Origin: Candidatus Roizmanbacteria bacterium
GTDB taxonomy: Bacteria > Patescibacteriota > Microgenomatia > UBA1406 > GWC2-37-13
DNA: 64,000 nucleotides
NCBI GenBank assembly: GCA_016215445.1
Contig: JACRJL010000003.1
Location: 218,924 to 282,923 of the forward strand
Direction of reading: 5' to 3'
Part shown: positions 5,504 through 16,413 of the stretch, in pieces
Numbering within the stretch: the first letter of the stretch is position 1
Layout: every line of letters begins with the position of its first letter
Position numbers and translations under genes: made by a program
Notes under the pieces: generated by a model
Databases searched by the model: none
Told to the model about the DNA's origin: nothing
Seen by the model: only the letters and a program-made list of their open reading frames with translations

Positions 5504-8500
5504 ATGAATCCAGGTGATGCTGAGCAAAATCCCCAGGAAAAAAATGCCGCCCAGAGTGCTGCTGAAGTAGCAAAACAGTTAATCTTGGAAATCAGACAGG
5601 AAAGAGCGGCTCAATTGGAAGCAATTGCCAATGAAGGTGATCCTGACAAAGCCCAGCAGCTGCGCGACCAGTTATCAGCAGAAATCCAAAAAGAATTGAA
5701 AGATAAACTTCATCTAGATGCTGATCAGGCAAAGGAAGCCAAAGATCAAAACAAGCAAGAAGATTTTGAAAAAAACGCTAAAGAAGTCAAAAAAACTATT
5801 CTTGAAGCCAAAGAGATGCTTGATAAGGATATCCATATCGGCGACCAAAAAACTGAAACATTAATTAAAGAGATCGCGAGTTTGATTGAAAAAGGCGAGA
5901 TCACTGACGACCAGACAGTTGCCATAGAAAGAGGTTTAGATAGATGGCTTTCAGGAGCAGAGAAGATCGTACTTTCTACTGGAGATCAAAAAAGCAATTT
6001 TGAAAAGGCAGTCGATTCGTTGCTTGATCAAGATCAAGAAGCCGGCCGGAAAATCGTCGATTTTATAAAAAAAGACGCCACTGATTTCGGTCAAACAGCG
6101 GAAAAAGTGGCGGAGAAATTTGACGTACCAAAAACCGAAGCGGAAATCCGAGATGCGTTCGACGATCAGTTAGGTTCAGAAGCTTTCAGAGGAGACCTTC
6201 AGTATTACTCTAAAAGATTCACAACGGATCAGATTAATCTTTTGGAAAAATTTTACTCGCCTAAAAAGTTTCTTGCCTATCTCGAAGAAATGGAAATAGG
6301 TGTTTCTTCTGGTAATAAAGTTGATCCGGAAAGACTCAAATATATTAAAGAGAGAAAAGATGATTTGAGGAGGCAGTTAAAGGAACACTCACAGGAAACA
6401 AAACAGGAAATCTCAGAGTCAAAACTAAACGAATTAGTGGAGAAAAATTGGATGCAGGAAGTTTCCAGGGAGATAAACTGGAAGGTTTCGGAAGTAGTCA
6501 ATCAGCTTTTTTTGGAGTTACAACAAAAACGTCCAGACAAATTTTATGAAGAAATCATGCAAGAAGATATTTTTCAAGGTCCGGCCCAGATTCAACACGC
6601 CATTCAAAGAGCCCTGAATACACTTTATTCAAAATTCTCAGAAATTGAAAAAAATGAAAGGGATCCGTTGCACGATAAAGTCAATAATTTAAATATTAAA
6701 CTTTATCGTTATGCTGCTCCTGAATCATATATAGATGAACGTGACGGTAAGGTTTATCCCAGATTAAAGCCATTGCCTTTTGGCCAGGATATTCCTTTGA
6801 GCGAATTTATTCAGTATCTAAATGTGACAATCGATCATACTATCCATCGAACAGAATACTTTCATAATGCCCGGGCTATGTTCAATCATCCGCCTGGTGA
6901 AAAAGGTTTTTATTCCCAGCTTGGAGGCTATGCAGAAAGTTTAAAGGGAACAGATATAGACGAAATCATGCTCCTTCCCGACGGGCAGTATGTATTACAG
7001 GCTTATCATCTTTATGAAAAAATGCTCGAAGAAGACTTTGCTTCACTTGACTGGCGCCACCGTCCTGATCAATTTACAAATCAATTACAACGTATCAACA
7101 GCAAAATCGAACAAGAAGTTATTGATATGTTGGGACTCTTTTATCCTTCCCTATCGAGAGAACGGGTAAGAAATATTGTCAACTCCGCCGTCGGAATAGG
7201 TAGGGGAATGTTTTTGACCGAAGCGGAAAAATCAGCTTACGCCGATCCTGTAGATGCAGAGGGAAGTGGAATGGTAGCTTCTTACTCGACCAATGATTCT
7301 GGTTCTCTTACTGTATTTAATCCTCTTCATGTCGCGTTAAGATGGCAGGGTGAACATCTTTGGAACATGATGTACTTTATGCCTGTAGAAGGAACTCCTG
7401 GTAAAGCGTGGAATCATAAACAAGCCTGGGTAAACATGGGTAAGTATATGAATTCATTTCTTTCTGGAAAAGCCGGCGGCGGTCGGGGAGACATTCCATT
7501 ATATGGAGTAAAAAAACCATATAAAATTTTTGCCGACGAAATGATTGATTTATTAAACGTTGGAGGTCCGGCTAAAAGAAAAGGTTGGCGAATGCTTTAT
7601 AGCATGGAAGGGCATTATGTATATGATAAAGATGCTGAAGGAAAAGCAACATTTAATGCTTTGCAAACATTTAAAGCAATGGAAGCGATTGGTTACGAAT
7701 CAATTTTCAACTTTATCGATACTCAATTAAAAAGTTTTGGAGGAGATCTTTTAAAAGCGACAGAAGGAAAAGGATTACAAAGAAGAAATGAACTTTTTAA
7801 ATATATGTTCAAGAGATATTTTTTTCAAGGCAGTGAAAAAGAATTTCAGGAAAACGATTTTAATAACTATATGAAAGATCTTACTAAAGAAGGAGAAGAA
7901 TCAGCCTTTAAAAAAGTTCGCGAAGGAAAAGCATCGGGTGATAATTGGGACGAGATTGTCCAGAATGAAATATCCTTGAATTTTCTGGAAGATTTTCTCG
8001 CCCACTATGTGGCTGAAAGATTTCCTTCCAAGTTCTTGAGGATGGATCGTAACCGTTTTCACGCCAAAGGCGTCAGTCGTTGGGAAAGTACTTATCAACA
8101 GATGAAATCAAAAGGTTGGGAAAGAGCAAAGTTTGACAAGGTTATGAAAGATATGACTATGACTGAAATGCTTTTCCGAAGAAAGATTAGCGAACTTATA
8201 AGAGCACAAATTGGTTTGGATAAAGAGTTGACCTTAGATAAGATTGAAAATCTGCCTTACCGTTTAGATGAAAAAACTATTAGAGAATTGCTTTCAAAAA
8301 ACGCCGATGGTAAAGAAGGATTTTTGTCTAATGAAAGGATTGAAGACGTCGTTGCCTTATTTAAACAGATAAAAATTAACTTTGATAATTTCGACTTTTT
8401 AAATGACCGGGCGTCCGAGGAAATAAGAAAATATTCTTTTACTTTTGGACTAGAGGATACAGACGTTTCTTTGATGGCTTTCCGCGGAACAGGTCCGAGG

Positions 8501-9172
8501 ATGATTGCCCGGGCAATCAAAGATACTGGTAGTTTGGAGGCAGAAGTTGTTCCTTGGATTTTGAATATGCCCCAGCTTTTAAATGAAATAGCTACAAACG
8601 GTAGTTATGATTTTTCCAAAATTATTGAATATTTAAAAAAAGCGCAAATGGCATTGACTATGGTTCATGGTCCGCCAGCTACATACGAATATGTTTATAA
8701 GATCGCCGGTCTTGTCATCAACTATTTTAAAAAAGATACTATCGCTAAACCTTTGTTTGGTTTATTTGGGCAAGGCAGGCTCAATTCTATCGCTGCCGAA
8801 TATGCCGGTCGGGGAACAGCTGTTTGGGAATGGGATGTACGCGACATTGATAATTTTATTACTGCTATGGAATCAAATCGATTACTTCCTAAACAGCCTT
8901 TTGATATGCAGGGAGGAAAAATTAAAGGGCCCAAATACGAAAATATCTGGTGGAAACTACCCTTTTTGGATAAACATATTAAATTTCCATTACTAAAAAA
9001 ACTAAAAGTTGATTTTCCATATAATTCGACCAAAATGAGAGCGGATTTTGGCGCTTCCGGAAAAGATATTACTTTATCAATGATCTATCAGTTCCTTCCA
9101 ATATTAGGTGCGTTTCTCATTTGGCAGTATATAAACAAGGCCAGAGAAGAAGCAGAAGGAAAGAAAAAATAA
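5504..9172 (+). CDS. Very large tail-anchored protein of unknown function (1222 aa)
   Basis: I do not recognise a family. There is no signal peptide. Residues 1 to about 380 are strongly charged, Glu/Lys/Gln-rich and probably coiled coil. The middle (about 400-1120) is mixed and looks globular, with aromatic-rich stretches. Near the C-terminus (about 1192-1212) is one hydrophobic segment 'MIYQFLPILGAFLIWQYI' followed by a basic tail, so the bulk probably faces the cytoplasm from a tail anchor. A good promoter stands right before it. The next gene, 17 nt on, encodes a VirB2-like membrane protein, and a VirB6-like gene follows on the other strand. This makes a structural or scaffold role in that machinery plausible, but it is inference only. 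Confidence 0.85.
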   Translation: MNPGDAEQNPQEKNAAQSAAEVAKQLILEIRQERAAQLEAIANEGDPDKAQQLRDQLSAEIQKELKDKLHLDADQAKEAKDQNKQEDFEKNAKEVKKTILEAKEMLDKDIHIGDQKTETLIKEIASLIEKGEITDDQTVAIERGLDRWLSGAEKIVLSTGDQKSNFEKAVDSLLDQDQEAGRKIVDFIKKDATDFGQTAEKVAEKFDVPKTEAEIRDAFDDQLGSEAFRGDLQYYSKRFTTDQINLLEKFYSPKKFLAYLEEMEIGVSSGNKVDPERLKYIKERKDDLRRQLKEHSQETKQEISESKLNELVEKNWMQEVSREINWKVSEVVNQLFLELQQKRPDKFYEEIMQEDIFQGPAQIQHAIQRALNTLYSKFSEIEKNERDPLHDKVNNLNIKLYRYAAPESYIDERDGKVYPRLKPLPFGQDIPLSEFIQYLNVTIDHTIHRTEYFHNARAMFNHPPGEKGFYSQLGGYAESLKGTDIDEIMLLPDGQYVLQAYHLYEKMLEEDFASLDWRHRPDQFTNQLQRINSKIEQEVIDMLGLFYPSLSRERVRNIVNSAVGIGRGMFLTEAEKSAYADPVDAEGSGMVASYSTNDSGSLTVFNPLHVALRWQGEHLWNMMYFMPVEGTPGKAWNHKQAWVNMGKYMNSFLSGKAGGGRGDIPLYGVKKPYKIFADEMIDLLNVGGPAKRKGWRMLYSMEGHYVYDKDAEGKATFNALQTFKAMEAIGYESIFNFIDTQLKSFGGDLLKATEGKGLQRRNELFKYMFKRYFFQGSEKEFQENDFNNYMKDLTKEGEESAFKKVREGKASGDNWDEIVQNEISLNFLEDFLAHYVAERFPSKFLRMDRNRFHAKGVSRWESTYQQMKSKGWERAKFDKVMKDMTMTEMLFRRKISELIRAQIGLDKELTLDKIENLPYRLDEKTIRELLSKNADGKEGFLSNERIEDVVALFKQIKINFDNFDFLNDRASEEIRKYSFTFGLEDTDVSLMAFRGTGPRMIARAIKDTGSLEAEVVPWILNMPQLLNEIATNGSYDFSKIIEYLKKAQMALTMVHGPPATYEYVYKIAGLVINYFKKDTIAKPLFGLFGQGRLNSIAAEYAGRGTAVWEWDVRDIDNFITAMESNRLLPKQPFDMQGGKIKGPKYENIWWKLPFLDKHIKFPLLKKLKVDFPYNSTKMRADFGASGKDITLSMIYQFLPILGAFLIWQYINKAREEAEGKKK

Positions 9173-9189: not shown

Positions 9190-9927
9190 ATGAAGAAAAA
9201 AATTCTAATTTTACTAAATTTGCTTTTTCTCTTCTTATTTACAATCAAGACTGATCTGTCAGCCCAAGTGACATATTTTCAGATTCCAGGAGTTAGTTGT
9301 GGTGTTGCTGGAGACATACAAAGTAATAAGTGCTGTGCGCCTTTTAAGTTTGAACCGGCTGGTTTACCTGACTTAGGGACACCTTTGCGGGTAGTTAGAG
9401 ATTTAATTCTGGGGCCTGGTTTTACTTATATAAAAAGTTTTTCCAAACCAGTTGAGGATTATCAAAATAAACTATTAGTACCGTGTTTTGAAGGCAAGCA
9501 AACAACAGCTGATCCATCAGACATCAACTGTCGATGTGAACTAACCTCGCAACCAGCTCCGGCCTCTTTGATAGCTTTACAGAAATTTTGTGATAACCAA
9601 ACAGGTTCGGGTGATAGGTCTAGATGCAGTTCTTGTATAAAAGGTGGGGGAGCTTGGACTGCAATTGGCTGCGTCCAAGGAAGTTTAAGCAGTTTTATTA
9701 GTCAGACAGTATTTGGTTGGGGTATAGGACTGGCTGGAGGACTGGCCTTACTTTGTATAATTTATGCTGCTTTCCAGATGCAGTCGTCCCAAGGCAATCC
9801 GGAGAAACTGAAAAAAGCCCAGGAAATGATCACGTCCTGCATCATGGGTTTAATGTTGATAATATTTTCAGTCTTTATTTTGAGACTGATTGGAGTTAAT
9901 ATTCTTCAGATTCCTGGGTTTAAATAA
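9190..9927 (+). CDS. Exported Cys-rich protein with VirB2/TrbC-like C-terminal membrane pair
   Basis: 245 aa. A signal peptide (about 1-25: 'KKKILILLNLLFLFLFTI', ending near 'LSA-Q') is followed by an exported region of about 140 residues with some eleven cysteines, including CC, CRC and CSSC clusters that suggest disulfides. The C-terminal 75 residues form two membrane helices joined by a short loop 'QSSQGNPEKLKKAQEMIT'. That helix-loop-helix is the pattern of VirB2/TrbC pilin-like proteins in CPR genomes and closely matches the loop in the 109-aa protein at 16084. Function as a pilin or surface subunit is inferred. It ends 5 nt from the convergent VirB6-like gene. Confidence 0.75.
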   Translation: MKKKILILLNLLFLFLFTIKTDLSAQVTYFQIPGVSCGVAGDIQSNKCCAPFKFEPAGLPDLGTPLRVVRDLILGPGFTYIKSFSKPVEDYQNKLLVPCFEGKQTTADPSDINCRCELTSQPAPASLIALQKFCDNQTGSGDRSRCSSCIKGGGAWTAIGCVQGSLSSFISQTVFGWGIGLAGGLALLCIIYAAFQMQSSQGNPEKLKKAQEMITSCIMGLMLIIFSVFILRLIGVNILQIPGFK

Positions 9928-9932
9928 GCAGG

Positions 9933-11621
9933 TTAGCTTTTTGCTTTTGGTGGCGGGCCGCCCATAAATCTAGCCCACCATCCTGGTAGATTTTTTCCGA
10001 TAACCCCATCTTTGCCAAACATTCCTTGTGGACCAAATGCTCCTAAAGCTAAACTCAAACTACCTATTGGTCCAGCAATACCCATGACTCCGCCGCCAAC
10101 AGCTGCAGCACCACCAAAGAATGTACCGATACCTAGGTTGAGAGGTAAGTCTTTTATACCCAGTGCTTCTTTAGTGACTTTGACCAAATCAGGGATCATA
10201 ATCATAAGGCCAATACCGATTAAAATTTTAAAAGATTCCGAATCAAATCCATTAAGGTAGGGTAGAGCAAGGTTGCTGTAACCTGACGGTGTTGTACTGT
10301 TCACGATTAGAAATCCAATAATAAAGACGGCAATTGTTATAGGAAAAGCAATCAAATTGCCAATAAGGTTTTTTATCCAGCTGGAGAAAATATTTTTTCC
10401 TGGAATGGCCTCAAACATAAGTAGAAAAGGTCCGATGACAATTAAAAGTATTAATTTAATATAAGCGGCAAAGAGCATGGCAAAAATTCTAAAAACAAGA
10501 AGGACGAGAGTCAAACCAATAAGAACCATTAAAAGACCAGTCACTAAAGTTGTTCCTAACATGTATATAACTAGTAGAACAAATACAAAAATAATAGAGC
10601 GTAATATAGCACTAGGAAGATTTCCTAAACTAAAAGTAGCTAATTCTATATTGTCAAACGCTTTGGAAATTGGTTCAACGAAGTTTGCGTCGAGGTGTAA
10701 ACGATTGAACATAAAAACAGTAAATACACCTCCCACAGCGACTTTAGCTAGTGTTGCAAACCAAAGCGGAAACAGGCCAAAAAGGGCATTACCTAGCTTT
10801 GGCAAAATTCCAAGTGAGGTAAACCACTGTCTGCCTCCAGTAACGTCTAAAAATATCTGCATCAATGAGGCGCCGATATAGTTATTTTGGAACTGGACAG
10901 CATCATAGTTATTGTTGTTGCTGCTCAAAACAGAAACTATCAAAATTATAGAAACATACATTAAGTCTATTAAAAACCCAGCGATAGCAAAGGAAAAAGT
11001 GATTAGAATCATCGCGATAACTATCTTTGGTAAGGCGTTTTCAACAGAAATAACAGTCTGTGGGTTCATTTTCATTCTAAACATGACCATAAAACCGATG
11101 GTAATTAATATTAAAACCAAAATCATATAGGCAAGGTCACGAAAGACCTTCCAAAGGTTGGCATAAGGCTTAATTGCGGCAAAGCCTAAGCCTTCAGCCG
11201 CATATGTTTTTGGAATTAGTCCAGAAGACTGGAGTCCTGAATAAGCCCAGGAGACACCAGAGGCCGGCGGGTTGGCGAAAGGAAAAATAATCATTTTGCT
11301 CATATAACCAAACAAACTCTTGTTGAAATTTTTATTGGCGTCGTTTGGTTTGTCTGTACAAGCTTCACCAATCATAAAACACATCGATGATCTATAGACG
11401 GCCAATGTTACTTTTCCACCAATTGTTGAATTGTATTCTTTATTTTTTAAAATCAGGTAGATTTCCTGTCGATTTTGTTCAATCAAGGTATTTTTAGTTG
11501 TCAATGCGGCCTTATCTTTATTGATAAAAATATTAAAAAGATAGATAACGGAAAAAAATACTATCGCAACAAAGGCTATTTTTTTGAATTTATTTAAGAC
11601 AGACTTCAAAAAAAATATCAT
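9933..11621 (-). CDS. VirB6/TrbL-like polytopic membrane protein
   Basis: 562 aa. An N-terminal membrane anchor (about 13-32) precedes an exported region of about 130 residues. Then come roughly eight to ten membrane helices (about 165-490), including a long hydrophobic run around 330-410. The tail is Gly/Ala/Pro-rich and ends 'MGGPPPKAKS'. This layout fits the TrbL/VirB6 inner-membrane channel proteins of type IV secretion systems as seen in CPR bacteria. Sequence similarity is weak, so the assignment rests on topology and on the VirB2-like neighbours. It is last in a three-gene minus-strand unit (13116 to 9933) with two membrane-anchored exported proteins. No VirB4 ATPase is in this window. 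Confidence 0.7.
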   Translation of the reverse strand: MIFFLKSVLNKFKKIAFVAIVFFSVIYLFNIFINKDKAALTTKNTLIEQNRQEIYLILKNKEYNSTIGGKVTLAVYRSSMCFMIGEACTDKPNDANKNFNKSLFGYMSKMIIFPFANPPASGVSWAYSGLQSSGLIPKTYAAEGLGFAAIKPYANLWKVFRDLAYMILVLILITIGFMVMFRMKMNPQTVISVENALPKIVIAMILITFSFAIAGFLIDLMYVSIILIVSVLSSNNNNYDAVQFQNNYIGASLMQIFLDVTGGRQWFTSLGILPKLGNALFGLFPLWFATLAKVAVGGVFTVFMFNRLHLDANFVEPISKAFDNIELATFSLGNLPSAILRSIIFVFVLLVIYMLGTTLVTGLLMVLIGLTLVLLVFRIFAMLFAAYIKLILLIVIGPFLLMFEAIPGKNIFSSWIKNLIGNLIAFPITIAVFIIGFLIVNSTTPSGYSNLALPYLNGFDSESFKILIGIGLMIMIPDLVKVTKEALGIKDLPLNLGIGTFFGGAAAVGGGVMGIAGPIGSLSLALGAFGPQGMFGKDGVIGKNLPGWWARFMGGPPPKAKS

Positions 11622-11636
11622 AGATTGATTTTACAA

Positions 11637-12071
11637 TTATCTAAAGTTGAATTGGTTGTTTCCCAAACTTGGATAGTTTGTACTTCTCCAATTTTCAAAT
11701 TCACTTCTAGCTTGGTCTTTCGGGTCTTTCAAAGTAACGACGAACTTATCTTCTCCATAGTCAAAATCAACTGAAAAGGTCGACAGATCAAGGGGAATCC
11801 TACCTCTCAAATCTTGTTTTTGAAGAGAAAGATTGACAGTTTCCTCGGGGATCTCCTGTTCAGCAACACCGGTAAAGTCAACCGGCTCGACAGTTGGCAT
11901 AAGACCATTATCCTGTGGTTGAGTTGTTTCAACAGTGGTCGGCGTCGGAAAATTGTTCTCTTCTTGGTTGATGGTTGGTTTTTTTCCAAAAGGAACAAAG
12001 GTAATGATTAAAAATAAAATGATTATTATTCCTGATATTGCTAAATAGACCTTGATATTTGGTGTTGGCAT
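11637..12071 (-). CDS. Membrane-anchored exported protein, shared C-terminal domain
   Basis: 144 aa. One N-terminal membrane segment (about 7-27) and a Thr/Pro-rich linker precede a small C-terminal domain (about 95-144). That domain, with 'FSVDFDYGEDKFVV', 'DQARSEFENW' and 'LGNNQF', resembles residues 68-108 of the neighbouring 347-aa protein ('FSFDYSPDLNQLVV', 'QAREKFNQW', 'LAGN'). The family is not one I can name. The gene sits 1 nt after the C39-like gene and 15 nt before the VirB6-like gene, so an accessory envelope role in that locus is likely (inference). Confidence 0.7.
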   Translation of the reverse strand: MPTPNIKVYLAISGIIIILFLIITFVPFGKKPTINQEENNFPTPTTVETTQPQDNGLMPTVEPVDFTGVAEQEIPEETVNLSLQKQDLRGRIPLDLSTFSVDFDYGEDKFVVTLKDPKDQARSEFENWRSTNYPSLGNNQFNFR

Positions 12072-12072
12072 A

Positions 12073-13116
12073 TTATTTTTTTACCCCAAAGGCGATTCTA
12101 TATTCGGGGAATGGATAACGGCTGTTTTCGTTAAAAGGGGGAGCCTGTAATCGGCCATAATAAGGATCGTAGGCCCAGATATTGCCTTTGTCATCAATGT
12201 CTGTGATCCAAAAATAATGCCCGCCGCCTGTAGATTTAAAGTTAGCCAAGGTGAAAAATGTCCAGCCGGAGTTGAGAAACTTTTTCAGGTCGCCTGTTAC
12301 TTGGTCAGCTGTTTCAAAGTTAAAAACAATATAATCTGTGGTTTTCAGACCAAGGCTTTCCAAAATAGACTTGGCGTCATAATAGGTTGATCCGGCACAG
12401 CTCAATAGATAGCCGCGAGATTTATACATATTAACAATCGTTCTTGGATTGAAGTTCGAACCCAAATAGGAAGAAGCAATCATGGCAACAGTTGTTGGAC
12501 CGCAACCAGCCTGGCATAAATTACAATTACCGTCGGGTAAAGGAAGGTCAGCGTATTCGCTGTCGCACTGGGCAAAGTAGGCTAAACCTGTGGTTGGAGG
12601 TTGGTTGTTATTAGTAGTAGAAGTGTCAGGTGAGGAAGGATTTTCTGTACCTGAAGGAGTTTGGGTTGTTTCTATGCCACGACCTAGATTAAGAAAGATA
12701 TTGAAAAATTCTATAATTGGTTCAGCAGCTTCTGCCAATGAGTTATTAGTCGTATCTGTTCCAGATTGGCCTTGAAAAACTATCGCTTCTGGATTGCCGG
12801 CCAGGTCAGAGATACCGTTTTCGTCAGCCCATTGGTTGAATTTTTCTCTGGCCTGGGGAGTTTTTTCCTGAACGACCAGTTGATTGAGATCAGGAGAGTA
12901 ATCAAAACTAAAATCCTCGTTTTCATAAGGAGTTAGTGGCAAGGCGCTGTTTATAACCCTGTCTGTAACTGCGATGTTTCCTTCGACAACAACAGTTGTT
13001 GGAGTTAAAAGCGACGATTGGTTATTGTTTAATGGCAATTTTGGTCGGTTGAGGAGAAAAAGTACGACTAAAATTGAAACGAGAATAATACTTGCAATAA
13101 TGATTGTTTTTCTCAT
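12073..13116 (-). CDS. Membrane-anchored C39-like cysteine peptidase
   Basis: 347 aa. N-terminal membrane anchor (about 4-21), then a small domain (about 68-108) shared with the 144-aa neighbour, then a Ser/Thr/Pro/Asn linker (about 150-180). The C-terminal peptidase C39-like domain (about 180-347) has 'QAGCGPTTVAMI' with the presumed Gln and catalytic Cys, 'GGHYFWITDI' with the His, and 'YDPYYG' with the Asp. The active domain is outside the cell. C39-like enzymes cut peptides, either leader peptides or cell-wall or surface substrates; the substrate here is unknown. It starts 11 nt from the clpC start on the other strand. A weak -10 (CATATT) lies 8 nt upstream. Confidence 0.85.
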   Translation of the reverse strand: MRKTIIIASIILVSILVVLFLLNRPKLPLNNNQSSLLTPTTVVVEGNIAVTDRVINSALPLTPYENEDFSFDYSPDLNQLVVQEKTPQAREKFNQWADENGISDLAGNPEAIVFQGQSGTDTTNNSLAEAAEPIIEFFNIFLNLGRGIETTQTPSGTENPSSPDTSTTNNNQPPTTGLAYFAQCDSEYADLPLPDGNCNLCQAGCGPTTVAMIASSYLGSNFNPRTIVNMYKSRGYLLSCAGSTYYDAKSILESLGLKTTDYIVFNFETADQVTGDLKKFLNSGWTFFTLANFKSTGGGHYFWITDIDDKGNIWAYDPYYGRLQAPPFNENSRYPFPEYRIAFGVKK

Positions 13117-13121
13117 ATAAT
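13116..13121 (+). promoter_or_regulatory. -10 box of clpC
   Basis: TATAAT ends 6 nt before ATG 13128, so transcription should start at or next to the A of the ATG. This argues for ATG 13128 over an upstream TTG at 13104, which would lie upstream of the -10. Confidence 0.55.
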
Positions 13122-13127
13122 GGAAAT

Positions 13128-16112
13128 ATGGCCGATTTCTTTGATTTTATAAAAAAACCAACCTCCAATACAAGTACAAATGGAGTTGTTCCTTCATCGG
13201 TAACCCCGGTTGCTCCAAACCCAGCACCTCCAGTTTCTCCTTTGCCAGTAGATAAAATCAATGGTAATATTAGCGAGCAGAATGTTGCCGGTAGTCCGAC
13301 AAACGGCGTTGCAAAATCATCCAAGCCGGAAACTACTGCGACGACAGCTAAAACTGTTCCAGGTAATGAAAAAAAACCGGCCACGAATAATCAGCAAGCC
13401 AACCTTGATCTCATGACTCATCTGACTCAACGTTCCAACCGAGTTATGATGTCGGCCCAGACAAAAACAAAAGAACTAAAAGGCGACTTTGTCGATAGTG
13501 AACATTTACTTTACGGATTAACTGCGGATAGCGAAATTTATAATCTTTTTGTCGAACTCAAGATTCAGCCCCAACTTGTTCAGGACGAGCTAAACAAAAT
13601 TTATAAGCGAGGGACAGTCGATAGGCCAACTCAGGTTTCACCAAGAATAAAAAGGATTATTGATAACGCTCTTGTTGTTGCCAGAAAGCTTGGTTTTGAA
13701 TTTATAGCACCAGAACATCTCCTGCTGGCTCTTTATGAAGAAGGTGAAGGCGCCGGAGCCAGAATTTTAGCCAAACTGGGAGTCCAAAAAGAAGATCTCA
13801 ACAAGAAAATTACCGGTAAAAAAGAAGGACTAAGTGAGGAACAGAAAGCTGCTGAAAAAAAGAAAAAAGCCTTAGAACAATTTACCATTGATTTAACAGC
13901 TAAAGCGGCTCAGGGCTTGCTTGATCCAGTGGTCGAGCGTTCAACCGTGATTGAACGGGTGATTCATATTCTATCTCGAAGGACAAAAAATAACCCATCC
14001 TTAGTCGGTGAGGCCGGCGTTGGAAAAACAGCCATAGTTGAAGGTTTGGCAGAAAAAATCGTCTCCAAAGAAGTTCCCGAACCTCTTTTGAATAAAAAAA
14101 TTCTCCAGCTTGATTTAATGAGTATTTTAGCCGGTGCTTCTCACCGAGGAGAGTTTGAGGAAAGAATGAAAGATTTAATTGAACAGGTTAAAGCTTCAAA
14201 TGGTCAGATTATTTTATTTATAGACGAAATTCATAATATTGTTGGCGCCGGCGCCAGCGGCGAGGGATCACTGGATGCTTCTAATTTTTTGAAACCAGCC
14301 TTGGCTCGAGGAGAAATACAGTTAATTGGAGCAACAACCATTACTGAATATAGGAAATATATTGAAAAAGATCCGGCTTTGGAGAGGCGTTTTCAACCTG
14401 TCTTAGTTCCCGAACCTACAGAAGAGGCAGCCATTAAAATGCTGGGTGCTATAAAAGATAAATATGAAGCTTTTCACAGGGTAAAAATTCCTTCTGAAGT
14501 GGTGGAAGCGGCTGTCAGACTTTCAAAAAGATATGTTGGAGACAGATTTTTGCCTGATAAAGCCGTTGATTTAATAGACGAGGCGGCTTCAGCAGTTCGT
14601 TTGCCCTTAATCTCTCTTCCTGAGGAAATCAAATCTTTAGATTCGAGAATTAAAGAACTGACTCAAGAGATGATGGAATCTGAAAAAAAAGGTGATAAAG
14701 TAAAATCAAGGATTTTGAAATCAAAAATCGACGAAATCCAAAGTGAATTGAAAAATAAACAAGAAGAGTTTAACCTAAAAAAAAGCCAAACGACAACTAG
14801 CGTTAGTCCAGAAATCATCAAAGATATAATTGCTCGTTGGACTGGTATTCCGGTTGCAAAAATCACTTCGTCTGAAGTTGAAAGACTGGCCCATCTTGAG
14901 GACATTATTCATAAAAGACTTATTAATCAAGAAGCGGCCGTGGCTTCAGTCGCCCAGGCGGTCCGTCGCGGTCGAGCTGGACTAAAGTCGGCGGCGCGGC
15001 CTATTGGAAGTTTCGTATTCTTGGGGCCAACCGGAGTCGGTAAAACCGAACTGGCAAAAACCCTAGCCGATGTTTTGTTTGGCAGCGAAGAACTGATGAT
15101 AAGATTTGACATGACAGAATACATGGAAAAACACGAAGTGGCTAAGCTTCTTGGCGCGCCACCTGGGTATGTTGGCTATGAAGAAGGAGGGAAGTTGACG
15201 GAAGCGGTACGAAGAAAACCATATAGTGTTGTTCTTTTCGACGAAATTGAAAAAGCCCACCCGGACATATTCAACATTCTTCTTCAGATTCTAGACGACG
15301 GACGTTTGACAGACAATAAAGGTCACGTAGTCTCTTTCAAAAATACGGTTGTGATCTGTACTTCAAATATAGGGACAAAATTAATTCAAGACGAGATGCT
15401 TAAGCAAAAATCCGAAGTGCAAAATCCGAAATCCGAAACAAATCCAAAGTCCAAAAAATCAAAAAACGCCCCCGCGACATCACGAGAAAGCGAAACAACC
15501 GAGGGATCTAAAAAGGTGAATAGTAGTTTTCAGGCGATTCGAGAAAAAGTAATGGCAGAGCTTTTGAAATTTTTCAAGCCTGAGTTAGTTAATCGTTTTG
15601 ACGAAGTCACTGTTTTTGAACCCTTAAGTTTCCAAAATATGTCAGAAATCGTTAAACTACAGATGAAAGGAGTAGGAAAGTTGTTGGAAGATCAGGAAGT
15701 CGGTTTCTACTATGAAGATCAGGTTCTTGAAGAAGTTGTCCAGGCAGGTTTTGACCCTCTTTACGGAGCTAGACCTCTAAAAAGAGCGATCCAGAAACTT
15801 ATCGAAAACCCAATCTCTAATTTGATTATTGCCAGCAAAGTAAAAATGGGAGATGTGATTCGCGTCAGGGTAGGTAAAGGTAATATGGTTTTTGACATTG
15901 AAAAAACCCAGATGGTGATGGGAAACTTTATAAAATATCATTGTCAGGACTGCGAAAATAATTTTGAAAACGAAGTTATTAAGAATTCGACAATAATCTG
16001 TCCAAAGTGCGGTAAACACAATGTCATTGCGAGTGAAGATAAACAATCTCAGCCCAAAAAAGAGGTTGCTGATAATAAACTAAATGAAAAACCTATTAAG
16101 CCAGTCAGTTGA
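13128..16112 (+). CDS. clpC: ClpC-type AAA+ unfoldase with extra N- and C-terminal regions
   Basis: 994 aa from ATG 13128. A disordered Ser/Thr/Pro/Asn-rich region (1 to about 90) precedes a Clp_N domain, AAA+ D1 (Walker A GEAGVGKT, 294-301; Walker B around 362-368), a short middle domain, D2 (Walker A GPTGVGKT, 633-640; '[12 protein letters not shown]') and the D2 small domain. The ATPase drives unfolding for a protease such as ClpP. Three oddities: a Lys/Ser/Pro/Glu-rich insertion around 760-797 encoded by DNA repeats; a C-terminal zinc-ribbon-like tail with C939xxC942 and C958xxC961; and a Gln/Lys tail partly encoded by another repeat. The next gene starts inside its end (29-nt overlap). 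ClpC versus ClpB cannot be fully separated by eye, but the short middle domain favours ClpC. Confidence 0.93.
15405..15509 (+). repeat. Repeat-derived insertion within clpC
   Basis: Two repeat types side by side, in frame. 15405-15460 has reiterated AAATCCGAA/AAATCCAAAG words. 15476-15509 resembles a degraded copy of the palindromic GTCATTGCGAG...GAAGCAATCTC family ('CACGAGAAAGCGAAACAA' then 'CGAGGGATCT'). Translated, this is a low-complexity polar insertion in the D2 domain. Confidence 0.5.
16023..16051 (+). repeat. Palindromic-family repeat in the clpC 3' end
   Basis: GTCATTGCGAGTGAAG followed by a CAATCTCA end. It matches the general form of the dispersed ATTGCGAG...CAATCTC repeats found in many bacterial genomes (recalled, not searched). 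It encodes [10 protein letters not shown] in the ClpC tail. Confidence 0.45.
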
Positions 16113-16413
16113 CTTTAACGGACAAGAAATCAAAGGCCCGTTGGTGGGAGCCAATGGTCAGCCGATTGAAAATCTGGGCCAACTAGTGAGCCGCGTCTTA
16201 TCATTTTTACTTCCTTTAGCCGGCGTAATTCTTCTTTTCGTTTTGATTTGGGGAGGCTATGATTACATGATGTCTCAGGGAAATCCAGAAAAGGTTAAAA
16301 CCGCACAGGCAAAAATCACAACAGGAATCATCGGGTTTGGCCTTCTTATTTTTTCTTACTTGCTCGTAAGACTAATTGCGGCTATATTTGGTCTCCAAAC
16401 AGGAATAATTTGA
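16084..16413 (+). CDS. VirB2/TrbC-like small membrane protein (pilin-like)
   Basis: 109 aa. A polar N-terminus (about 1-30) is followed by two membrane helices (about 33-53 and 78-100) joined by the loop 'MSQGNPEKVKTAQAKITTG'. This helix-loop-helix form is typical of VirB2/TrbC-type pilin-like proteins in CPR bacteria. The loop is nearly the same as in the 245-aa Cys-rich protein at 9190. The gene starts inside the end of clpC, so it is co-transcribed with clpC and probably translationally coupled. Role in a secretion or pilus-like assembly is inferred. Confidence 0.8.
   Translation: MKNLLSQSVDFNGQEIKGPLVGANGQPIENLGQLVSRVLSFLLPLAGVILLFVLIWGGYDYMMSQGNPEKVKTAQAKITTGIIGFGLLIFSYLLVRLIAAIFGLQTGII

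What the first reader, a model, noticed from the sequence alone, without database searches (positions are those of the whole stretch)
9190..9927. VirB2-like helix pair attached to a Cys-rich exported head
The loop SQGNPEK(L/V)K..AQ..IT is shared with the small protein at 16084, but here the helix pair follows a signal peptide and about 140 exported residues with some eleven cysteines. A pilin-like subunit with a disulfide-rich head could be a tip or adhesin.
Basis: partly seen in the sequence, partly recalled or inferred. Interest (0 to 1): 0.5.

Follow-up and report, generated by a model that had tools for sequence, protein, structure and literature searches.

The report
Secretion pilin with variable cysteine-rich head
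In a tiny uncultured bacterium related to the Roizmanbacteria, a protein built like a secretion-system pilus subunit carries an extra exported head, probably braced by disulfides, that is constant near the membrane and very variable further out, which makes it a candidate for the part that touches other cells.

Summary
Window 9190-9927 encodes a signal sequence, about 139 exported residues with ten cysteines (not eleven; two more lie in the helices), and a helix pair that passes Pfam's T4SS_pilin cutoff and is 48% identical over 54 residues to the 109-aa protein at 16084. It belongs to a widespread gene type: 90 head-bearing pilins in 74 of 81 sources examined, with 83 to 762 residues before the hairpin. 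Four cysteines beside the membrane are kept in 81-87 of 90; distal heads are mostly unrelated (36 of 70 match no other); most small pilins have no cysteine before the hairpin. Where both kinds share a cluster, a head gene is first in 29 of 29. In the window's family and its sister family the gene abuts a membrane protein whose predicted fold best resembles VirB6. VirB4, PrgI and VirD4-like matches lie elsewhere in the genome. VirB2-like pilins and arrays in Patescibacteria are published; I found no description of the heads. Best reading: a minor, head-bearing VirB2-type pilin. Tip or adhesin is plausible but unshown. Rivals: a membrane-resident VirB5-like stalk cap, or a surface protein reusing the hairpin as anchor.

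The parts
9190..9927 (+). head-bearing T4SS pilin gene (245 aa)
   Evidence: PF18895 27.9 bits vs cutoff 26.6; orthologues
9190..9264 (+). signal sequence, residues 1-25 (cleavage after LSA is my reading of the motif; no predictor run)
   Evidence: hydrophobic core; predicted helix 2-18
9265..9483 (+). distal head, residues 26-98 (C37, C48, C49; predicted long helix 64-95); the most variable part
   Evidence: mean pairwise identity 0.21 among 41 orthologues; model
9484..9684 (+). membrane-proximal cysteine neck, residues 99-165 (C99, C114, C116, C134, C146, C149, C161)
   Evidence: C134/C146/C149/C161 kept in 86/87/84/81 of 90 head pilins
9685..9924 (+). pilin helix pair, residues 166-245: helix 166-199, turn 200-203, helix 204-234; C189 and C217, one in each helix
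   Evidence: model pLDDT 85.3; mean identity 0.63
9933..11621 (-). 562-aa polytopic membrane protein, VirB6-like by predicted fold
   Evidence: Foldseek and VIA matches to R388 stalk and Legionella DotA-IcmX chains; hydrophobic spans
16084..16413 (+). 109-aa small T4SS pilin without cysteine or obvious signal sequence; start overlaps the end of the ClpB gene by 29 bases
   Evidence: PF18895 35.4 bits
11637..12071 (-). 144-aa protein with one N-terminal transmembrane helix, in the conserved neighbourhood; role unknown
12073..13116 (-). 347-aa exported or anchored C39-like peptidase in the conserved neighbourhood; link to the pilin unknown
   Evidence: PF13529 35.2 bits
5504..9172 (+). 1222-aa protein of unknown function with a C-terminal hydrophobic span, directly upstream; relatives in part of the loci

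Best explanation
The gene encodes a minor, head-bearing pilin of the Patescibacteria type IV secretion system. Shown by sequence: a hydrophobic export signal, a cysteine-rich region after it, and a T4SS_pilin hairpin, beside a gene for a VirB6-like protein. Inferred: Sec exports the head, its cysteines pair, and the hairpin stays in the membrane with the lysine-rich loop inside. The hairpin then docks on the VirB6-like protein as VirB2 is proposed to do, either as the first subunit loaded or as an occasional one. Small pilins such as the 109-aa protein are added beneath it, so the head is carried outward at or near the tip of a pilus. There its variable distal part would touch a partner cell, doing in one chain what VirB5 and VirB2 do separately elsewhere. 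Family membership and export are near certain (about 0.9); the minor-subunit and tip steps are a reasoned guess (about 0.45).
For: Pilin family and topology. Fold match of the neighbour to VirB6. Head gene within 1 kb of this VirB6-like gene, convergent: 39 of 42 heads in 40 loci of families f1 and f2; of the other three, two are first copies in two-head loci and one overlaps by 3 bases. Gene order: head gene first in 29 of 29 clusters holding both kinds, chance product 1.9e-13, kinship not corrected. Constant base, variable head: hairpin 0.63, neck 0.34, distal 0.21 mean identity in 41 orthologues; 36 of 70 distal heads match no other at E<=1e-4. Hydrophobic N-terminal core in 88 of 90 head pilins against 18 of 163 small ones. 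Four or more cysteines before the hairpin in 84 of 87 pilins with 100 or more residues there, none in 122 of 134 with fewer than 50. Large heads are too wide to sit on every subunit of a VirB2-type pilus (with 90 A diameter, 12.14 A rise and C5 symmetry from passages of PMC12037004). T4SS genes elsewhere in the genome: VirB4, PrgI and VirD4-like matches.
Against: No pilus of these bacteria is described in the passages I read, and polymerisation was not testable. The window's own head (139 aa) might just fit on every subunit (843 against 936 square angstrom). No adhesin or VirB5 fold was found for the head: Foldseek gave no match at E<=0.001, and the second look covered mostly the hairpin. Head pilin, small pilin and VirB4 genes lie in separate places in this genome. 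One locus of the same order (L062, family f3) has head pilins but no VirB6-like match in the stretch. Variable heads could reflect phage pressure or relaxed constraint rather than adhesion.
Confidence: 0.48

Rival explanations
1. A membrane-resident stalk cap: the hairpin packs on the VirB6-like protein and stays there, and the head forms a fixed stalk or plug, like VirB5 on VirB6 or IcmX on DotA, without ever riding on a pilus.
For: Direct gene neighbourhood with the VirB6-like gene; its model best matches the R388 stalk and the Legionella protochannel; the VirB5-on-VirB6 stalk is described in PMC9259494 (passages). In f1/f2 loci the head gene stands alone beside the VirB6-like gene, away from the small pilin.
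Against: A structural stalk should be conserved in size, yet heads in the f1/f2 loci belong to proteins of 244 to 837 aa (lengths from the first possible start) with mostly unrelated distal parts. No VirB5 or IcmX fold match for the head-pilin model at E<=0.001.
Confidence: 0.24
2. A surface protein that only borrows the pilin hairpin as a membrane anchor and does not take part in secretion.
For: Own-genome pilin genes are dispersed and distal heads are diverse. Other Patescibacteria have pilin-type hairpins on very long C-terminal extensions, as if the hairpin were a general anchor.
Against: The hairpin is the most conserved part, more than an anchor needs; constant linkage to the VirB6-like gene in f1/f2 and to small pilins elsewhere.
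Confidence: 0.15
3. The head is present on most subunits: a decorated pilus shaft with head pilins as major subunits.
For: 14 of the 74 sources with heads have two or more head genes; 3 of 29 mixed clusters have more head than small genes; a 139-aa head is just about tolerable sterically.
Against: The largest heads (about 600-700 aa by my reading of start sites) cannot fit on every subunit; in 26 of 29 mixed clusters small pilins equal or outnumber head pilins.
Confidence: 0.08
4. The cysteines serve metal or redox chemistry rather than structural disulfides.
For: CXC and CXXC spacings in the neck. No VKOR match in 72 of 139 genomes searched, some incomplete, so that oxidising partner is not universal.
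Against: Even cysteine number in 40 of 41 mature heads; paired loss of C134 and C146 in three proteins from different families against one single loss (p=3.4e-5, not corrected for kinship or for the 21 pairs tested). The own genome has VKOR and Thioredoxin_4 (DsbA-type, my gloss) matches.
Confidence: 0.05

Closest known systems
VirB2-like pilins (Pfam PF18895 T4SS_pilin) and pilin arrays of Patescibacteria (PMC12102498; abstract, section 13 and passages read)
   Same: Same pilin family; [quoted passage not shown] includes the essential pilin array of Ca. S. epibionticum.
   Different: The text I read speaks of the small size of VirB2 and reports that no adhesins such as PrgB were detected; it does not mention exported cysteine-rich heads, a first place for a head gene, or head variability. 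Its supplements were not open to me.
VirB5/TrwJ tip protein on VirB6 (R388; PMC9259494, passages)
   Same: Proposed role: an exported domain above VirB6 that ends up at the pilus tip.
   Different: VirB5 is a separate protein; no sequence match and no fold match at E<=0.001 was found for the head pilin.
Archaeal Ced/Ted pilins CedA1 and TedC (PMC9905601, passages)
   Same: VirB2-type pilins, one unprocessed and one with a cleaved signal peptide, a contrast like that between small and head pilins here.
   Different: The passages describe no head domains.
Mbov_0395 family pilin-like conjugal transfer protein (NCBIfam NF045849)
   Same: Small pilin 38.7 bits, head pilin 23.9 bits over the hairpin.
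   Different: Both below the curated cutoff of 40; the family model is 80 positions long, too short to hold a head.

Membership tests
T4SS pilin (Pfam PF18895) | hairpin scores above the curated cutoff | tested here: met
   27.9 bits vs 26.6. Of 20 longer-headed relatives, 8 pass, 11 score 14.8-26.3 and one (L044) has no hit
VirB2-type pilin | two hydrophobic helices joined by a short positively charged loop, both ends outside | tested here: met
   helices 166-199 and 204-234, 4-residue turn; hydrophobic spans and lysine-rich loop; orientation inferred from the signal sequence, not measured
VirB2-type pilin | TrbC/VirB2 Pfam family PF04956 | tested here: inconclusive
   no hit for the head pilin at E<=1; small pilin 14.6 bits, below cutoff 27.9
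VirB2-type pilin | Sec signal peptide | tested here: inconclusive
   N-terminal hydrophobic core in 88 of 90 head pilins; no dedicated predictor available; small pilins mostly lack it (18 of 163)
VirB2-type pilin | encoded with VirB4/VirB6 of a T4SS | tested here: inconclusive
   VirB6-like neighbour by fold; VirB4 and PrgI in the same genome but about 160 kb away
VirB2-type pilin | polymerises into a lipid-containing pilus | not testable with these tools
   needs electron microscopy or biochemistry
VirB6 (neighbour 9933-11621) | VirB6 fold | tested here: inconclusive
   the 8 best Foldseek rows are R388 stalk or DotA-IcmX chains but E is 0.06-2.9; VIA Z 8.4-10.5 against 6.2 for the first unrelated row, rmsd 6.9-16.9 A, and the tool warns that helical bundles can reach such Z by chance; no VirB6 Pfam hit for any of 46 members at E<=0.01
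VirB5 tip protein | sequence or fold similarity to VirB5 | tested here: inconclusive
   no PDB sequence match at E<=1; no Foldseek match at E<=0.001; the head was not folded alone
Adhesin | binds a partner cell or surface | not testable with these tools
   one relative's head has a sub-cutoff bacterial Ig-like match (20.3 vs 35.5 bits)

The most novel reading that the evidence does not exclude
The head pilin is the missing tip of the Patescibacteria T4SS pilus: a one-chain VirB5-VirB2 equivalent that starts pilus growth on the VirB6-like protein and carries a fast-changing, disulfide-braced recognition head, so that the first gene of each pilin array specifies which partner cell is contacted.
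Probability: 0.33. Interest if true: 0.8.

Novelty: new variant of a known kind. Interest (0 to 1): 0.6.

Why it matters
The T4SS and its pilin array are essential for host-dependent growth in the one Patescibacterium in which this was tested (PMC10633639, PMC12102498; passages). The 2025 survey detected no adhesins such as PrgB and, in the text I read, names a VirB5 homologue in one genome only, one with a Gram-negative-type system. A variable head fused to the pilin, first in its cluster, is a concrete candidate for the part that contacts the host. The four-cysteine neck plus hairpin is a sequence handle for finding such subunits in uncultured lineages and a testable route to partner specificity.

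Tried and rejected
Pilin-like helix pair inside the VirB6-like neighbour: withdrawn. A profile meant to hold only pilins hit 47 of 62 VirB6-like ORFs at E<1e-3, but on checking, two of its 255 members were VirB6-like fragments. Without them it hits 2 of 62, plus one unrelated ORF, and no reversed sequence. Profile-profile comparison was also weak (probability 1.9-3.3%). A VirB2/VirB6 relation is published for CedA/CedA1 and, with lower significance, for A. tumefaciens (PMC9905601, passages); my data neither support nor exclude it. The same two fragments had been counted as small pilins (165); the corrected counts (163 small pilins, 84 of 87) are. The 54 VirB6-like proteins set aside were caught by the iterated profile, which had drifted in the same way.

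Sequence comparison with solved structures: no match at E<=1 for the head-pilin profile or the VirB6-like profile; the small-pilin profile gave only weak hits to unrelated membrane proteins (best E 0.099). Structure search with the head-pilin model: generic helical hairpins in the second look, nothing at E<=0.001 with Foldseek; no T4SS pilus among the 50 rows shown in either, which does not exclude one.

Known domains in the heads: 20 longer head pilins scanned with Pfam gave no domain above cutoff apart from T4SS_pilin; one sub-cutoff Ig-like match. PHROGs gave nothing at E<=0.01 for five window proteins.

Helix cysteines C189 and C217 always occur together (43 with both, 47 with neither, of 90). 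I do not use this as proof of contact: the trait nearly coincides with one clade (42 of 43 heads of families f1 and f2, plus one head of another family of the same order).

VKOR as a partner of cysteine-rich heads: matches in 67 of 139 genomes only, so no dependence can be claimed.

Full report
What is there. Window 9190-9927(+) encodes 245 aa: a signal sequence, an exported region with ten cysteines, and a hydrophobic helix pair with two more. The helix pair passes Pfam's cutoff for T4SS_pilin (27.9 bits vs 26.6) and so does the 109-aa protein at 16084 (35.4 bits). The two share 26 of 54 residues and their family profiles align with 98.5% probability. Cysteine makes up 0.44% of residues in 44 other window ORFs of 150 aa or more, so ten in 139 is far from chance (P=8e-10).

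Where it is. The named relatives are mostly Candidatus Roizmanbacteria and other Microgenomates (60 loci). The genome (940 kb, 3 contigs) has nine PF18895 matches at E<=1, six over the cutoff. One of the six is a second cysteine-headed pilin (186 aa, CDLCGFC motif), which falls just under the cutoff when scanned as a protein (25.0 bits). The same genome has VirB4 (P-loop_TraG, 98 bits) and PrgI (40.5 bits) about 160 kb from the head pilin, and two TraG-D_C (VirD4-like) matches.

A widespread gene type. 136 of 144 genomes, the own one included, match the protein at E<=0.001. I fetched 76 stretches around best matches in 75 of these genomes, plus four from the own genome, so the sample is chosen, not random. 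With the window this makes 81 sources. An iterated pilin profile found 90 head-bearing pilins (hairpin domain starting at residue 70 or later, four or more cysteines before it) in 74 sources; seven sources had none (L078, L100, L103, L111 and three own-genome stretches). After two misfiled VirB6-like fragments were removed, 163 small pilins remain. Among pilins with 100 or more residues before the domain, 84 of 87 have four or more cysteines there; with fewer than 50 residues, 122 of 134 have none. A hydrophobic N-terminal core is present in 88 of 90 head pilins and in 18 of 163 small ones. Lengths count from the first possible start codon and are upper bounds.

Constant neck, variable head. 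C134, C146, C149 and C161 are kept in 86, 87, 84 and 81 of 90. In 41 orthologues nine cysteines are invariant; the mature head holds 10 in 28, 12 in 9, and 8, 11, 14 and 18 in one each. C134 and C146 are absent together in three proteins, C134 alone in one, C146 alone in none (p=3.4e-5, not corrected for kinship or for the 21 pairs tested), which suggests a disulfide. Mean pairwise identity is 0.63 in the hairpin, 0.34 in the neck and 0.21 in the distal head. Of 70 distal heads of 50 aa or more, 36 match no other at E<=1e-4; the largest group of similar ones has 21. Total length runs from 157 to 837 aa. Pfam found no known domain above cutoff in 20 longer head pilins apart from the pilin itself.

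Gene order. In 29 same-strand clusters that hold both kinds, a head pilin is first in all 29 (one also ends with a head pilin); chance, taken cluster by cluster, gives 1.9e-13, with kinship not corrected. In 40 loci of the window's family f1 and of f2 the head gene faces a 562-aa-type membrane protein: within 1 kb, convergent and at the 3' side for 39 of 42 heads. The exceptions are the first copies in two two-head loci and one overlap of 3 bases. A locus of a third family of the order (L062) showed no such protein. The wider order ValRS, YidC, Jag, large protein, head pilin, VirB6-like, small TM protein, C39 peptidase, ClpB, small pilin recurs in whole or in part in many loci, not in all.

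The neighbour. No Pfam family recognises the 562-aa protein, and none of 46 relatives hits a VirB6 family at E<=0.01. Its AlphaFold model (pLDDT 79.9, pTM 0.67) has chains of the R388 stalk or of the Legionella DotA-IcmX channel as the eight best Foldseek rows, though with E-values of 0.06-2.9. The second aligner gives Z 8.4-10.5 for these against 6.2 for the first unrelated row, with large rmsd and the tool's warning about helical bundles. Entry titles name both VirB5 and VirB6; I read the 260-272-residue chains as VirB6 (recalled). I call it VirB6-like, not VirB6. The 2025 survey found VirB6 scarce in Microgenomatia and suspected divergence (PMC12102498, section 13). I first thought that its first helix pair resembles the pilin; a check showed that the profile was contaminated, and the signal fell from 47 to 2 of 62, so I withdraw that.

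Structure. The head-pilin model (pLDDT 85.3, pTM 0.52) has a long helix 64-95, short strands, two short helices with neck cysteines, and the hairpin 166-199/204-234. Searches gave no informative match. The topology agrees with VirB2: a lysine-rich loop, presumably inside, and ends outside. In solved conjugation pili the charged loop faces the lumen (PMC12037004, passages); that the ends then lie outward, leaving room for a head, is recalled.

How it may work. In R388, VirB6 is proposed to recruit VirB2, and a VirB5 pentamer to be carried out at the tip (PMC9259494, passages). I propose that the head pilin combines both roles or stands in for the first VirB2 layer. With published pilus dimensions, heads of 600-700 aa cannot sit on every subunit (2235-2477 against 1093-1115 square angstrom), but the window's own head could (843 against 936). 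Tip location, polymerisation and binding are inferred, not shown.

Other lineages. With a profile of neck plus hairpin, 371 of 380 genomes of the phylum match at E<=1e-6, but many of the listed matches cover only the hairpin. In 20 stretches chosen for long frames or for neck matches, 12 hold at least one pilin with six or more cysteines before the hairpin; others carry long extensions after it.

What is known. VirB2-like pilins, arrays of 2-11 genes and a suggested role in adapting to host strains are in PMC12102498; essentiality is in PMC10633639 (passages). My searches (listings) showed no paper on head-bearing pilins; PF18895 or its name occurs in one paper of the library. Most subscription journals, and all bioRxiv preprints, are outside it.

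Verdict. A real and widespread variant of the VirB2-like pilin, with a plausible but unproven role as tip or contact subunit.

Noticed in passing
L184, L185, L186, L187, L189 (other Patescibacteria): Pilin-type hairpins near the N-terminus followed by extensions of hundreds to thousands of residues (open frames up to 3471 aa): a second architecture, with the extra domain after the hairpin.
   Followed up: no
L080:6638-7198 (own genome, C3:76637-77197): A second cysteine-headed pilin with a CDLCGFC motif, within about 10 kb of VirB4 and PrgI matches, a SpoIID/LytB-like protein and an 817-aa polytopic protein; similar CDLCGxC heads recur beside larger head pilins in several relatives.
   Followed up: partly
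L080:9193-9792: A 200-aa ORF with a signal-like N-terminus and a cohesin domain (PF00963, 38.3 bits) directly upstream of that 817-aa protein in the own genome.
   Followed up: no
window 13104-16413: The ClpB gene (with a C-terminal zinc-ribbon-like match below the Pfam cutoff) overlaps the start of the small pilin by 29 bases. Of 23 ClpB-small pilin pairs on the same strand, 7 overlap and 3 more lie 0-9 bases apart.
   Followed up: partly
window 5504-9172: A 1222-aa protein of no known family with one C-terminal hydrophobic span, directly upstream of the head pilin, with relatives at the same place in part of the related loci.
   Followed up: no
window 11637-13116: The 144-aa protein and the C39-like peptidase may share an N-terminal domain (in L091 the 144-aa query also hits the peptidase, E about 1e-4).
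   Followed up: no
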